A stretch of 64,000 nucleotides of DNA from Neisseria weaveri. GTDB taxonomy: Bacteria; Pseudomonadota; Gammaproteobacteria; Burkholderiales; Neisseriaceae. The DNA is taken from the NCBI RefSeq assembly GCF_900638685.1, contig NZ_LR134533.1:1550001-1614000 (forward strand), written 5' to 3'. This document shows positions 20,821 to 38,629 of the stretch, piece after piece. The notes below the pieces were generated by a model. That model did not search any database. It saw nothing but the letters and a program-made list of their open reading frames with translations, and was not told the origin of the DNA. The position numbers and the translations under genes are program-made. Each line of letters opens with the position of its first letter. Within the stretch, counting starts at the first letter, position 1.

Positions 20821-22965
20821 TTAATATTTTGTGTAAGCGTAATAGCTGTGCACATTTTGGGAATTGCGCGGTACGCTGTTGAAAATAATGCCGTTGATGT
20901 TGATATTGTTGTTTTTCAGACGGCTTAACGTTGCTTCCAGTTCGGCGGCAGTTGTGTTGTTGTGACGGACAACTAAGAAAGCTGTGCCGGCATATTGGCC
21001 GATAATGTTGGCATCGGTAACCGCCAATACGGGCGGTGTGTCGATAATAACGTAGTCATAGCGTTGTCTTGCCCATTCCAACAGGGCTTTCAAGCGGTTA
21101 TCCATCAGTAATTCGGATGGATTGTCCGGAATCTTACCATGTCCGATAAAGCTTAAATTCGGAACTTGGGTCGGTTGGATGACTTTTTCCGGTGAAGTTT
21201 GTCCGGAAAGGATTTCTGCCAAACCTTCAGATTTGTCGACTGCAAAAACACTGTCTAAATAACCTTTGCGCATATCGGCGTCGATTAGCAGCACACGTTT
21301 GTCGGATTGGGCCATAACGCTGGCTAAATTGGAGGCGATAAACGATTTGCCTGCTTCGGGCGCCGCTCCCGATATCATTAAGATATTGTTTTTCGCGTCC
21401 ATAGTTGAGAAGTGTACATGGGTACGTAGCGAACGTATGGCTTCGATAGCAATGTCAGAGGGGTCTTGTTTGGCCAACAGGAAGTGTTTCTTGGCACTGC
21501 TATTGTTTTTCAGCCATTTGGCAGCCGGCTGTATTTTGTTTTGGGTGGGTGAAATAGGAATCACAACGGTAACTTCCGTGCCCAAAGCTTCAATTTCTTC
21601 TTGGCTGGTAAGATGTCGGCGTGAGATTGAACGTACCAAGAACCAAGATGAGGCCAGCAAACCGGCCATCAGTGCTGATAAGAAGATGATAACGGCTTTT
21701 TTCGGTTTGATCGGATATTCGCCCGACACTGCCGGGTCGATAATACGCACGTGACCTTGGGCACTCGCTTTCATAATATTGAGCTCTTGCTGTTTGGTCA
21801 GCAGCTGCATATATGTGGCTTGATTGGTTTCGACGTTGCGTGTTAAGCGGATAATTTCCTGCTGGGTATTCGGTAAGTCGGCAATTTGGCGGTTGATTTT
21901 CGCTTTGGCTTGTTGCAGAACCCTTAATTTATCCAAGACGGCTTTATAAGACGGATGTTCAGGCGTATACAGTTCGGCCAGTCCGGCTTCTTCTGTTTTT
22001 AATGTGGTAATTTGTGATTCGATTTGAATCAGGCTCTCCAAAGCGCCTCTTGCTTCTATAGGAATATCGAGAGAACCGCTCTTGCGGCGGTATTCATTCA
22101 GCCTGTTTTCCGAATCCTGTAAAGCTTCTTTCAGGCGTGGTAATTCCTCACCGATAAATGCCAAGCCGTTGACGGCAACTTGTACGTCTTTGTTTTTGTT
22201 TTGGCTTACATAGTTATTGATGATGCTGTTTAAGATCAAGCTGATTTGATCGGGGTCGGTACCGGTGTAGCCGAGATTGATAATCGGGCTGGTTTTGCCT
22301 TTGCTTAATACGGACAGGTTAGTGAGCACTTTTTCAATGGCGCTGCGTTGAGAATATTTGGTCAATGTAAATTTTTGACCCGGCTCGGCCAAAATCTGAT
22401 TGATTTGTAATGAAGTTTTGGGATTGATTTGAACAGTTTTGCCCACTTGTCCGTTGATGTTTGAATTGTCGGGCATAGTAGCGGTAAAACTCTTGTTGTC
22501 GATAACTTCGATTTCAATCGGTTTATTCAGCCATGCATCGTCAACTTCGAGAGTATATACGTCCAGCTGCGGTTTGGGGTCGCTGCTGAGATTTTGTGCG
22601 AGATTGCCGAAAACGGGAAAATATTTTGGCTCGATATGTTTGTCTAGATTAAGCTCTTTCACGGTTTGGCTGATGATCAGACGTGATTGGATCAGCTCGA
22701 TTTCCGCTTCGGATTGAGACGGCTCTTGAGTAAACAGGCTGCTGATTTCGTTTAGAATTTGGTTTTGTTTGGTGCCCAATTCCAACATGGCATCCGCGCG
22801 ATAGACGGGTGTAGTAGAAAAGGAGTAAATAGCACCGGCTAATCCGCCCAATAAAACGGCAGTAGCAATCTGGCGTTTATGATTTAGCAGATTTCTAAGC
22901 TGTTTGCCGAAATCTATATCGTCATCGGAATTGGCGGGCGTATTTTTCGTATAGTATTTGTTCAT
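20821..22965 (-). CDS. wzc: Polysaccharide co-polymerase / BY-family tyrosine kinase Wzc
   Basis: 714 residues. Wzz domain with first membrane helix at about 33-50 and second at 424-445, a coiled-coil periplasmic region between, then the cytoplasmic kinase: EAIRSLRT helix (508-515), Walker A GAAPEAGKS (533-541), Walker A' LLIDADMR (559-566), Walker B VIIDTPP. The tail has Tyr708, 709, 711 and 714, the expected autophosphorylation cluster. Wzc sets chain length and, through cycles of phosphorylation and Wzb dephosphorylation, drives group 1-type capsule or exopolysaccharide export with Wza. Last gene of the operon. Confidence 0.96.
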   Translation of the reverse strand: MNKYYTKNTPANSDDDIDFGKQLRNLLNHKRQIATAVLLGGLAGAIYSFSTTPVYRADAMLELGTKQNQILNEISSLFTQEPSQSEAEIELIQSRLIISQTVKELNLDKHIEPKYFPVFGNLAQNLSSDPKPQLDVYTLEVDDAWLNKPIEIEVIDNKSFTATMPDNSNINGQVGKTVQINPKTSLQINQILAEPGQKFTLTKYSQRSAIEKVLTNLSVLSKGKTSPIINLGYTGTDPDQISLILNSIINNYVSQNKNKDVQVAVNGLAFIGEELPRLKEALQDSENRLNEYRRKSGSLDIPIEARGALESLIQIESQITTLKTEEAGLAELYTPEHPSYKAVLDKLRVLQQAKAKINRQIADLPNTQQEIIRLTRNVETNQATYMQLLTKQQELNIMKASAQGHVRIIDPAVSGEYPIKPKKAVIIFLSALMAGLLASSWFLVRSISRRHLTSQEEIEALGTEVTVVIPISPTQNKIQPAAKWLKNNSSAKKHFLLAKQDPSDIAIEAIRSLRTHVHFSTMDAKNNILMISGAAPEAGKSFIASNLASVMAQSDKRVLLIDADMRKGYLDSVFAVDKSEGLAEILSGQTSPEKVIQPTQVPNLSFIGHGKIPDNPSELLMDNRLKALLEWARQRYDYVIIDTPPVLAVTDANIIGQYAGTAFLVVRHNNTTAAELEATLSRLKNNNININGIIFNSVPRNSQNVHSYYAYTKY

Positions 22966-22990
22966 TATTTCGTTTCCCTAAGTTGGGGAT

Positions 22991-23437
22991 TCAACCGGCC
23001 GTCTGATTGGAGAGTTTGTTGCTCCAAAGTTCGGCGGCTTCTTCTAAATGCTGATAAACAAGTTCAAAAAATTCTTCGCTTTGCATATAAGGGTCGGGAA
23101 TACTTTTTTTTGCATTCCATTGGGCAAACAGCATGGTTTTGCTTCTCGAAGAAGGGGCTATTTCTGCTACTGAATCGATCTGCGAAGGTTCCATTACCAG
23201 TATCAAATCCGCTTCTCTGCACATGTCTTTTGTTAATTGGCGGGCAACATGGCCTGCGATAATGACCCCGTGTTTCAAAGCGGTTTTAATGGCTTGAAAA
23301 TCCGCATCCCGCGGTGCGGGTACGTATAAACCGGCCGAGTAAATATTTAATTTAGGAAGCCTTTTGCGGAGTAACTGCTCGGCGGTAGGCGAGCGGCAGA
23401 TGTTACCGACGCATACGATCAAAATATTTTGATACAT
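22991..23437 (-). CDS. wzb: Low-molecular-weight protein tyrosine phosphatase Wzb
   Basis: 148 residues. The P-loop CVGNICRS near the N-terminus (Cys10-x5-Arg16) and the DPY acid loop (PDPYMQSEEFFE) near 112 are both present. It dephosphorylates the tyrosine tail of Wzc. Between wza and wzc with gaps of 35 and 25 bases. Confidence 0.95.
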   Translation of the reverse strand: MYQNILIVCVGNICRSPTAEQLLRKRLPKLNIYSAGLYVPAPRDADFQAIKTALKHGVIIAGHVARQLTKDMCREADLILVMEPSQIDSVAEIAPSSRSKTMLFAQWNAKKSIPDPYMQSEEFFELVYQHLEEAAELWSNKLSNQTAG

Positions 23438-37170: not shown

Positions 37171-37318
37171 GTGCTTATCGCAATTAATCTCGTTTGTTTC
37201 GTATTTTGTTAAGTTTATAGGCCGCAATCCAAAGTGTGTGCAATTTGATTACAAACGGCACCGGCTTCGGATGACGGCCTGATTCGGATACTGAATATTG
37301 ACAGCAGCAGAAAGCGGT

Positions 37319-38629
37319 TTAGGCTTTGACTACTTTGGCATCTTTGCCTGAGAAGCGGCCGCGGGTATCAATAATCAGTTTGGCGTGTTGTTTTATTAAG
37401 TCGTAATCAAATTTGTCGTGGTCGGTGGTTAAAACGACGCAGTCAAATTTGGCCACATTTTCAGCAGAGATTTCTTCGCTGCTCAAATCGAAGTAGTGGT
37501 GTCCGGGAATGTACGGGAATACCGGAACATGCGGATCGGAGTAGGAAACTTTTGCACCGAGCGAGTGCAGGCGGTCCATAATTTCTACCGATGGGCTTTC
37601 GCGCATATCGTCAACGTTTTTCTTGTAGGCAATGCCTAAAACCAAGATTTTGCTGTCTTTGATAGAACGGTTGTGTTCATTCAATGCCAATCCTACTTTG
37701 CTGATAACGTAGTCGGGCATAGAAGAGTTCACTTCGCCGGCCAATTCGATAAAGCGCGTATTAACGCCGTATTCGCGGGCTTTCCAAGTCAGATAGAACG
37801 GGTCGATGGGGATACAGTGACCGCCCAAACCCGGACCCGGATAGTAAGCGACGAAGCCGAACGGTTTGGTCGCCGCAGCGTTGATGACTTCGTGGATGTC
37901 GATATCCATTTTGTCGGCCACGATTTTCATTTCGTTTACCAAACCGATGTTAACGGCGCGGTGGATGTTTTCCAGCAGCTTGGTCAATTCGGCGGCTTTG
38001 GTAGAGCTAACCGGCACCACTTTGTCGATTGCAGGTTGATACAGCGCCATGCCCACTTCCAAGCAAGCGGGAGTGTGTCCGCCCAATACTTTAGGGATGG
38101 TGCGGGTTTCGAAATTCGGGTTGCCCGGGTCTTCGCGTTCGGGCGAGTAAACCAAGAATACGTCTTGGCCGACTTTCAGTCCCTGTTCTTCCATACGCGG
38201 CAGCAATTCTTCTTCGGTTGTGCCGGGATAGGTGGTACTTTCCAAAGATAAAACCTGACCGGCACGCAGATAAGGTTTAACGGCATTGGTCGTGTCGATA
38301 ACGAAACTGATGTCCGGTTCGCGGTATTTGTTTAACGGAGTCGGTACGCACAAGATAATGGCTTCCACCTCGCCGATGCGGCTGAAATCGGTTGTGGCCT
38401 CAAAGCGTGTATTGCGTGCGGCAGCGATTTTTTCTGCCGGAATGTGTTCGATATAGCTTTCGCCCTGGTTGAGTTTGGTAACTTTGTCTTCATCAATGTC
38501 GAAGCCCAAAACGGAATAGCCGATGTCTACATAGCGCAGCATCAGCGGCAGACCGACATAACCCAAACCGACAATACCGATTTTGGCAGATTTATCGGCA
38601 AATTTTTGAATGGTGGTATTTTTCATCAT
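37319..38629 (-). CDS. wbpA: UDP-N-acetyl-D-glucosamine 6-dehydrogenase WbpA
   Basis: 436 residues. N-terminal Rossmann motif GIVGLGYVGLPL, ILCVPTPLNKYREPD, SLESTTYPGTTEEELLPR, the catalytic-Cys segment PGPGLGGHCIPIDPFYL and VLGIAYKKNVDDMRESPS. The match to Pseudomonas WbpA, recalled by eye, is very close. It oxidises C6 of UDP-GlcNAc twice to the uronic acid, so the polymer probably contains an N-acetylated hexuronic acid. The partners WbpB, WbpE and WbpD are not in this operon. First gene of the polysaccharide operon; ATG 38629 follows GGA at short distance. Confidence 0.92.
   Translation of the reverse strand: MMKNTTIQKFADKSAKIGIVGLGYVGLPLMLRYVDIGYSVLGFDIDEDKVTKLNQGESYIEHIPAEKIAAARNTRFEATTDFSRIGEVEAIILCVPTPLNKYREPDISFVIDTTNAVKPYLRAGQVLSLESTTYPGTTEEELLPRMEEQGLKVGQDVFLVYSPEREDPGNPNFETRTIPKVLGGHTPACLEVGMALYQPAIDKVVPVSSTKAAELTKLLENIHRAVNIGLVNEMKIVADKMDIDIHEVINAAATKPFGFVAYYPGPGLGGHCIPIDPFYLTWKAREYGVNTRFIELAGEVNSSMPDYVISKVGLALNEHNRSIKDSKILVLGIAYKKNVDDMRESPSVEIMDRLHSLGAKVSYSDPHVPVFPYIPGHHYFDLSSEEISAENVAKFDCVVLTTDHDKFDYDLIKQHAKLIIDTRGRFSGKDAKVVKA

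What the first reader, a model, noticed from the sequence alone, without database searches (positions are those of the whole stretch)
20821..38629. Wzx/Wzy-dependent polysaccharide locus merged with pgl-type genes
Fifteen genes on one strand combine protein-glycosylation genes (pglB/pglC/pglD type, flippase in the pglF position) with a polymerase and a complete Wza-Wzb-Wzc export system. Known Neisseria capsules use ABC transporters, and pgl loci normally lack export genes. The locus may make a secreted polymer, feed glycoprotein and polymer pathways from one lipid-linked intermediate, or represent a pgl locus that acquired an export module.
Basis: partly seen in the sequence, partly recalled or inferred. 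Interest (0 to 1): 0.75.

Follow-up and report, generated by a model that had tools for sequence, protein, structure and literature searches.

The report
Protein-sugar locus that also exports polymer
In this Neisseria, one 15-gene cluster appears to build a short sugar chain both for attaching to proteins and for linking into a long exported surface polymer; many relatives carry the same arrangement, and the disease-causing species seem to keep only the protein half.

Summary
Fifteen same-strand genes (20821-38638) encode a sugar dehydrogenase, Wzx, Wzy, three GT4 glycosyltransferases, a phosphoglycosyltransferase (PGT), ATP-grasp, HAD and formyltransferase-fold enzymes, PglC- and PglD-type enzymes, and Wza-Wzb-Wzc. 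PGT and ATP-grasp correspond to a split PglB2.

The PGT is the only one of its family in the complete genome; PglL lies about 22 kb away. So there is no second pgl locus. An ABC-type capsule locus exists too.

Of 45 genus genomes with a PGT, 30 have Wza, Wzb and Wzc beside it. Nine have Wzx without Wzy or Wza/b/c. Wza/b/c follow the species tree; Wzx and Wzy only weakly.

Best reading: a two-branch pathway as in Acinetobacter baumannii. One lipid-linked oligosaccharide goes to PglL for proteins, or to Wzy and Wza-Wzb-Wzc for a surface polymer. In the main Neisseria clade the pgl-only locus looks like the reduced form. No polymer has been shown. The cluster was printed in 2011 as a putative LPS locus without mention of pgl; ten searches of an open-access library found no paper joining the two.

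The parts
37319..38638 (-). UDP-sugar dehydrogenase (candidate pglJ), first gene of the cluster
   Evidence: PF03721/PF00984/PF03720, TIGR03026 over cut-off. 80-90% aa identity to its relatives near the PGT of other genomes, but 10 of the 30 loci with Wza/b/c show no dehydrogenase in the fetched region and 4 a 34% one. Not found beside the PGT of G005, G015, G020, G023, G040, which fits the published absence of pglJ from pathogens
35749..37227 (-). Wzx-type flippase, in the pglF position (likely ATG start near 37170)
   Evidence: PF01943 over cut-off; 12 hydrophobic segments
34547..35719 (-). GT4 glycosyltransferase, candidate pglP
   Evidence: PF13439 + PF00534, the domains published for PglP, and directly 3' of wzx as pglP lies 3' of pglF in N. 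elongata; orthology is inferred
33266..34525 (-). Wzy-type polymerase
   Evidence: PF04932 over cut-off, 10 hydrophobic segments; its homologs occur only in loci that also hold Wza/b/c
32160..33326 (-). GT4 glycosyltransferase, pglG position (likely ATG start near 33230)
   Evidence: PF00534 + PF13439; about 80% identity to the gene at that position in fused-PglB genome G009
30963..32144 (-). GT4 glycosyltransferase, pglH position
   Evidence: PF13692/PF00534; 58-70% identity to genes at that position in fused-PglB genomes
30362..30979 (-). Phosphoglycosyltransferase, N-terminal half of PglB/PglB2; the only PF02397 protein of the genome
   Evidence: PF02397; single hit in the complete genome
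29404..30378 (-). ATP-grasp ligase, corresponding to the C-terminal half of a fused PglB2-like protein
   Evidence: PF21360/PF15632/PF02655; same domains fused to the PGT in G003; UniRef names a relative 'Protein Pglb2'
28700..29374 (-). HAD-family hydrolase; role unknown (could supply the acyl group used by the ATP-grasp enzyme)
   Evidence: PF13419; role is inference
27858..28640 (-). Formyltransferase-fold enzyme, role unknown
   Evidence: PF00551; found in 18 of the 45 loci, each of which also holds Wza/b/c
26690..27880 (-). PglC-type aminotransferase; lies in a recombination patch
   Evidence: PF01041; 96.5% nt identity to G045 over 26690-27999
24620..26551 (-). PglD-type 4,6-dehydratase
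   Evidence: PF02719
23473..24606 (-). Wza outer-membrane export protein
   Evidence: PF02563, PF22461, PF18412; NF011658 over cut-off
22991..23437 (-). Wzb low-molecular-weight tyrosine phosphatase
   Evidence: PF01451; CVGNICRS in the translation fits the phosphatase CX5R motif (motif recalled)
20821..22965 (-). Wzc tyrosine autokinase / co-polymerase
   Evidence: PF02706, PF13807, PF23607, PF13614, TIGR01007 over cut-off; tyrosine-rich C terminus in the translation
26651..26681 (.). 12-bp inverted repeat between the pglC- and pglD-type genes, function unknown
   Evidence: its 8-mer arms occur nowhere else in the window

Best explanation
This is the species' pgl core locus and, at the same time, a Wzx/Wzy-dependent surface-polysaccharide locus. 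PglD- and PglC-type enzymes and the ATP-grasp enzyme make a trideoxyhexose unit (GATDH-like, by PglB2 precedent). The only PGT of its family puts it on the lipid carrier. Three GT4 enzymes (candidate PglH, PglG, PglP), with hexuronic acid from the dehydrogenase (candidate PglJ), extend it to about four sugars, and Wzx flips it. In the periplasm the pathway splits: PglL, encoded elsewhere, moves single units onto proteins; Wzy, controlled by Wzc and Wzb, polymerises units and Wza exports the polymer. This would be the Acinetobacter baumannii scheme. Within the main Neisseria clade the dual locus is ancestral, and joint loss of wzy and wza-wzb-wzc left the pgl-only loci. Shown here: gene content, copy numbers, distribution, tree pattern. 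Inferred: enzyme substrates, sharing of the intermediate, existence of the polymer.
For: One PF02397 protein in the whole genome, exactly one in 43 of 46 genus genomes. PglL_A in 46 of 46. Own PglL candidate has PglL_A, Wzy_C and Wzy_C_2. One PF00953 protein only. Wza+Wzb+Wzc in 30 of 45 PGT neighbourhoods; Wzy homolog in 24 of these 30; nine loci with Wzx lack Wzy and Wza/b/c alike and their genomes have no Wza-type Poly_export protein anywhere. No remnants by tblastn, with copies from nine genomes as queries, in 13 loci lacking them. Wza/b/c distances track rpoBC (rho 0.88-0.91), Wzx, Wzy and the first GT only weakly (0.26-0.31). Absence needs 4 changes on the tree, 3-4 in bootstraps; one clade is rejected, p-AU 9.4e-5. 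The PGT domain of the G005-type fused PglB nests among split PGTs. Published O-glycans of commensals have 3-4 sugars whose make-up correlates with pglG, pglH, pglJ and pglP.
Against: No polymer, glycan or mutant data for this organism. G001 and G010 keep split PGT and ATP-grasp without Wzy/Wza/b/c, so this sugar chemistry alone does not go with export. PglP/PglG/PglH/PglJ assignments rest on position, domains and identity; 10 of the 30 dual loci show no dehydrogenase in the fetched region. The association over 38 loci is not corrected for ancestry; well-supported branches alone force only 2 changes. The sister group of the main clade on the 59-genome tree is mixed (5 with Wza/b/c, 13 without, 7 of these from other genera), while one search was rooted on those 5 only. 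The 3' flank differs: a queA-like gene follows Wzc in the window and 6 relatives, other genes follow PglD in the fused-PglB group. PF04932 does not by itself separate polymerase from ligase. None of the fused-PglB genomes was identified by name.
Confidence: 0.7

Rival explanations
1. The cluster makes an LPS O-antigen, as proposed for N. sicca 4320 in 2011: Wzy polymer is ligated to lipid A-core.
For: PMC3078933 Figure 8 legend and Table 2 call nearly the same gene set a putative LPS cluster, and the text says that N. [quoted passage not shown]
Against: The own genome has only two PF04932 proteins, the locus Wzy and the PglL candidate, and no PF13425 match over cut-off, so no separate WaaL candidate was found. 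Wza-Wzb-Wzc is capsule/EPS export machinery (established knowledge). Three GTs plus a PGT predict about four sugars, not two (inference).
Confidence: 0.1
2. A dedicated capsule/EPS locus only: the polymer is real, but PglL does not use this intermediate or is inactive here.
For: Complete Wzx/Wzy/Wza/Wzb/Wzc set. O-OTases of more distant commensals are reported not to glycosylate pilin (passage), so PglL roles differ between species.
Against: No other PF02397 PGT and no WecA-type candidate to supply PglL; PglL_A in all 46 genus genomes; protein glycans were found in all commensal isolates tested in PMC6959607.
Confidence: 0.12
3. A protein-glycosylation locus whose Wzy, Wza, Wzb and Wzc are silent or serve another substrate.
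For: I found no report of such a polymer; a second, ABC-type capsule system exists.
Against: Wzy, Wza, Wzb and Wzc are present or absent together and the export genes evolve with the species; the window copies are open over their full length.
Confidence: 0.06
4. A pgl-only locus recently gained the polymerase and export genes by transfer.
For: Most other genera of the family lack the arrangement; the pglC-type gene lies in a recently recombined patch; the sister group of the main clade is mixed.
Against: Wza/b/c follow the species tree in the genus; absence is nested in the main clade; G054 of another genus has the same 3' end, PGT-PglD-Wza-Wzb-Wzc.
Confidence: 0.04

Closest known systems
Acinetobacter baumannii K locus with O-OTase PglL (two-branch pathway)
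   Same: Wzx/Wzy/Wza/Wzb/Wzc plus a repeat unit that PglL puts singly on proteins (passages of PMC6333632)
   Different: Here the PGT/ATP-grasp/pglC/pglD set is the neisserial pgl core, the pglL candidate lies about 22 kb away, and an ABC-type capsule coexists; sharing of the unit is inferred, not shown
Neisseria pgl core locus (pglF-G-H-B/B2-C-D)
   Same: Same gene order, ribD on the 5' side where that part was fetched; pglL outside
   Different: Adds wzy among the GT genes and wza-wzb-wzc after pglD; the fused-PglB loci lack both and have another 3' flank
Putative LPS cluster of N. sicca 4320 (PMC3078933, Figure 8 legend)
   Same: Same list from dehydrogenase to Wzc, including translocase, Wzy, carbamoyl-phosphate-synthase-like (ATP-grasp), HAD and formyltransferase genes
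   Different: Lists two glycosyltransferases plus one sugar transferase that I take for the PGT, so one GT fewer; interpreted there as LPS; pgl is not mentioned (0 occurrences)
Neisseria ABC-type capsule locus (ctrABCD)
   Same: Both export a surface polysaccharide; the own genome has both
   Different: Another export class; the ctr-type genes are ABC transporter parts with no Wzy or Wzc

Membership tests
Wzx/Wzy-dependent surface polysaccharide locus | Initiating PGT, flippase, polymerase, GTs in one locus | tested here: met
Wzx/Wzy-dependent surface polysaccharide locus | Wza, Wzb, Wzc export/co-polymerase set | tested here: met
Wzx/Wzy-dependent surface polysaccharide locus | Wzi surface-attachment protein (group 1 capsules) | tested here: inconclusive
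   0 of 46 genomes, but no control genome rang either
Wzx/Wzy-dependent surface polysaccharide locus | A polymer is made and exported | not testable with these tools
   needs mutants and glycan analysis
Neisseria pgl core locus | Conserved order flippase-G-H-PGT-C-D | tested here: met
   against the published order; G and H by position and identity
Neisseria pgl core locus | pglL elsewhere in the genome | tested here: met
Neisseria pgl core locus | No second pgl locus in the genome | tested here: met
   single PF02397 gene
Neisseria pgl core locus | Proteins carry the glycan | not testable with these tools
   needs mass spectrometry
Acinetobacter-type two-branch pathway | One initiating enzyme available for both branches | tested here: met
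   (gene counts only)
Acinetobacter-type two-branch pathway | O-glycan equals polymer repeat unit | not testable with these tools
   needs structures of both
LPS O-antigen locus | A WaaL ligase besides PglL | tested here: not met
   PF04932: only Wzy and the PglL candidate; PF13425: none over cut-off

The most novel reading that the evidence does not exclude
The protein-glycosylation locus of the pathogenic Neisseria is a relict of a two-purpose capsule-type locus: many Neisseria species would make an undescribed polymer whose repeat unit is their O-glycan (23 of the 30 genomes with the dual locus also have a CtrA-type protein of an ABC capsule system), and two to four lineages lost the polymer branch while keeping protein glycosylation.
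Probability: 0.55. Interest if true: 0.75.

Novelty: new member of a known kind. Interest (0 to 1): 0.6.

Why it matters
It joins two separate accounts of the same genes (putative LPS cluster; pgl core locus). It gives a polarity for the evolution of the much-studied neisserial O-glycosylation system, in which the pgl-only locus is the reduced form. It predicts an unseen surface polymer in many commensal Neisseria, with a repeat unit that can be guessed from published O-glycan mass spectra. It also means that pglB, pglC or pglD mutants of commensals may have lost a polymer as well as protein glycans; pglB and pglC mutants of N. musculi are reported to colonise poorly (passages), though I did not test whether that species has the dual locus.

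Tried and rejected
Remnant search: tblastn of Wzy, Wza, Wzb and Wzc from nine genomes against 13 loci lacking them found nothing at E 1e-3; absence is clean, so remnants do not date the losses. Wzi: no match, but no control genome rang, so nothing can be said. Phase variation: one T8 run at 23104 and no other listed repeat in a simple pattern scan of 20501-39000. Promoter and terminator scans gave about chance numbers (26 against 24.7, 29 against 25.7). Downstream flanks: many fetched regions end at or near Wzc; where more was seen, a queA-like gene (name recalled for the relatives; called in the window) follows Wzc in 6 genomes as in the window, while other genes follow PglD in six fused-PglB genomes. 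So 'same place' rests on the ribD side only, and the flank speaks against a simple deletion. G009: its PGT, PglD and RibD resemble the G005-type group closely although rpoBC places it with the G014 group at modest support; either shared loss or locus transfer. The 59-genome tree does not make the genus one group (7 other-genus rows fall among its deep branches). I dropped 'three unrelated modules by chance': the order is conserved genus-wide. Literature: ten searches showed no paper joining pgl and Wza/Wzb/Wzc in Neisseria; only the top 10-20 rows of each list were shown, the library lacks most subscription papers, and I saw no figures or supplements.
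Full report
1. What is there. One search lists the ORFs; Pfam and NCBIfam scans give, in transcription order on the minus strand: UDP-sugar dehydrogenase (37319-38638), Wzx flippase (35749-37227), GT4 (34547-35719), Wzy polymerase (33266-34525), GT4 (32160-33326), GT4 (30963-32144), PGT (30362-30979), ATP-grasp (29404-30378), HAD hydrolase (28700-29374), formyltransferase fold (27858-28640), PglC-type aminotransferase (26690-27880), PglD-type dehydratase (24620-26551), Wza (23473-24606), Wzb (22991-23437), Wzc (20821-22965). Neighbouring genes overlap or stand 150 bases apart or less, so one operon is likely (inference). 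ribD lies upstream at 38838-39947 and queA on the other strand at 19698-20753.

2. Genome background. The window lies in a complete genome of 2,238,481 bases. It holds one PF02397 PGT, the one in this locus; one PF00953 protein, 383 aa, MraY-like by size; and two PF04932 proteins, the locus Wzy and a second that carries PglL_A, Wzy_C and Wzy_C_2, about 22 kb from the low end of the locus. No PF13425 ligase passes the cut-off. An ABC-type capsule set (ctrA-, ctrC- and ctrD-like by Pfam, a ctrB-like ORF without Pfam match, and Capsule_synth genes) lies 25-35 kb before the window. So this genome has one pgl locus, this one, and in addition an ABC-type capsule system.

3. The sugar. In G003 the PGT and ATP-grasp domains are one 527-aa protein in the same place, and UniRef names a relative of the ATP-grasp part 'Protein Pglb2'. 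PglB2 makes the lipid-linked GATDH unit (PMC6959607, section 5 part 1 read). The GT genes sit at the pglP, pglG and pglH positions, and the first has the two domains published for PglP. The dehydrogenase is present in fused-PglB genomes G009 and G018 and not found in the fetched regions of G005, G015, G020, G023 and G040, which matches the published absence of pglJ from the pathogens and N. lactamica (passages). Against this, of the 30 loci with Wza/b/c, 14 have a close relative of it, 4 only a 34% one, and 12 none seen (in 2 of those, G016 and G026, the contig ends early). Published O-glycans of N. mucosa and N. oralis begin with GATDH and have four sugars (section 8 read). I therefore predict a tetrasaccharide unit for the window; this is inference.

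4. Distribution. All counts include the own genome. PF02397: 45 of 46 genus genomes have it, 43 exactly one; G029 has three, G030 two, G031 (68% complete) none. Poly_export proteins: sorted by score, 23 of 46 have a Wza-type and a CtrA-type, 7 Wza-type only, 6 CtrA-type only, 10 neither (my sorting). In the 45 PGT neighbourhoods Wza+Wzb+Wzc are all present in 30. Of these 30, 24 have a homolog of the window's Wzy; 5 (G006, G026, G029, G030, G041) have two other polytopic proteins in place of Wzx and Wzy; in the two tested, G006 and G029, the flippase passes PF01943 and the polymerase candidate matches PF04932 only below cut-off; in G016 the contig ends before that part. Nine (G001, G005, G009, G010, G015, G018, G020, G023, G040) have Wzx but no Wzy, Wza, Wzb or Wzc; the G010 contig ends before PglD, but its genome has only a CtrA-type Poly_export match. 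The other six are G033 (Wzx only, contig ends), G004, G013, G017 (none near the PGT), G032, G034 (short contigs). Counting the five alternative cassettes as polymerase-positive gives 29 and 0 against 0 and 9 (Fisher p 6e-9); counting them as negative gives 24, 5, 0, 9 (p 1.2e-5). Both leave out seven genomes (G004, G013, G016, G017, G032, G033, G034) and ignore shared ancestry. In two of the 30 an open frame is split: Wzc in G014, Wzx and Wzy in G042. PglL_A: 46 of 46.

5. History. On the 59-genome rpoBC tree the main clade has 32 genomes, 24 with and 8 without Wza/b/c; over the whole tree the label needs 8 changes. Its sister group is mixed: 5 with, 13 without, 7 of them from other genera, so the genus is not one group there. 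G023 was left out for a broken rpoB; G034 and G035 had no rpoB match. The 37-genome careful tree, rooted on the 5 Wza/b/c-bearing sister genomes only, needs 4 changes (3-4 in bootstraps; well-supported branches alone force 2); holding the eight without Wza/b/c together is rejected (p-AU 9.4e-5; the group comes from gene content but I had seen the first tree). The early branches of the main clade (G003/G039, G000, a seven-genome clade, G008) all have Wza/b/c, so loss is the simpler reading within it. Wzc, Wza and Wzb distances follow rpoBC (rho 0.91, 0.88, 0.91; n 29); Wzy, Wzx and the first GT do so weakly (0.26, 0.31, 0.27; n 22, 31, 18; still above most shuffles, p 0.003-0.032). That is the pattern of a capsule-type locus: stable export genes, exchanged middle. 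In the PGT tree the fused PGT domains of the G005-type group plus G009 nest beside split PGTs of the G014/G025/G036-G038 group at moderate support (83-88), and G018 lies apart; the tree needs two changes for fusion, well-supported branches force one. G020's fused protein matches the solved acetyltransferase domain 4m98, named 'Pilin glycosylation protein', at 375 bits. No fused-PglB genome was identified by name; that the named pathogens lack the polymerase, chain-length, Wza and translocase homologs comes from Table 2 of PMC3078933. The deeper root is open: most other genera lack the arrangement, but G054 has a flippase-like protein (PF01943 below cut-off), an EpsG-type polymerase, PGT, PglD, Wza, Wzb, Wzc.

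6. Mechanism. A. baumannii is the precedent: K units go singly to proteins through PglL or are polymerised by Wzy and exported by Wza/Wzb/Wzc (passages of PMC6333632). The Neisseria locus has each part, with pglL unlinked. I rate this 0.7. The LPS reading of 2011 is weakened by the lack of a separate ligase candidate and by Wza. On re-checking, the mixed sister group, the unlike 3' flanks and the unnamed fused-PglB genomes made me lower the 'relict' reading from 0.6 to 0.55.

7. What is in print. PMC3078933 (sections 11 and 12 read, passages) lists nearly the same genes in N. sicca 4320, says the region is largely intact in most commensals and missing in pathogens, and reads this as loss of LPS in pathogen evolution; 'pgl' occurs 0 times. 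PMC6959607 (section 5 part 1 and section 8 read, passages) defines the pgl core locus and notes a few interspersed ORFs in some deeply branching commensals; 'wza' and 'wzc' occur 0 times. PMC7643975 (passages) reports pglB2 and pglB2b as two genes in three isolates; PMC6202450 (passages) on commensal capsule genes has 0 occurrences of wza, wzx, wzy and pgl; PMC11130364 and PMC9239064 (passages) have 0 of wza; PMC1976384 (passages) compares PglF with a Wzc/RfbX family and does not speak of a polymer branch in the passages seen. So the gene cluster is known; its identity as the pgl locus and the two-branch reading are, as far as these ten searches show, not in print.

8. Limits. All function is inferred. 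Genomes are one per species. The species of the window was not identified; 65 of its 79 DNA-uptake-sequence cores are of the AG type (motif names recalled).

Noticed in passing
26690-27999: Recombination patch: 96.5% nucleotide identity to G045, and 94.9% to G002 over 26729-27865; GC 0.55 in the aminotransferase and 0.52 in the formyltransferase gene against 0.44-0.49 in the other 13 genes.
   Followed up: partly
26651-26681: 12-bp inverted repeat between the pglC- and pglD-type genes; could be an attenuator or a recombination join.
   Followed up: no
27858-28640: Formyltransferase-fold gene, in 18 of 45 loci and always with Wza/b/c; no sugar named in the O-glycan section that I read explains it.
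   Followed up: partly
L101:217-10336: ABC-type capsule gene set 25-35 kb before the window; two polysaccharide export classes in one genome.
   Followed up: partly
L044 and L070, between PGT and aminotransferase: G002 and G028 have a 213-214 aa ORF there in place of ATP-grasp, HAD and formyltransferase genes; its family was not tested.
   Followed up: no
L071: G029 has three PF02397 genes and two PglL_A proteins, an exception to the single-PGT rule.
   Followed up: no
L087: G047 of another genus has two PGT genes about 14 kb apart with a dehydrogenase and two polytopic ORFs between them.
   Followed up: no
20821-38638: 14 of the window's 79 DNA-uptake-sequence cores lie inside the locus.
   Followed up: no
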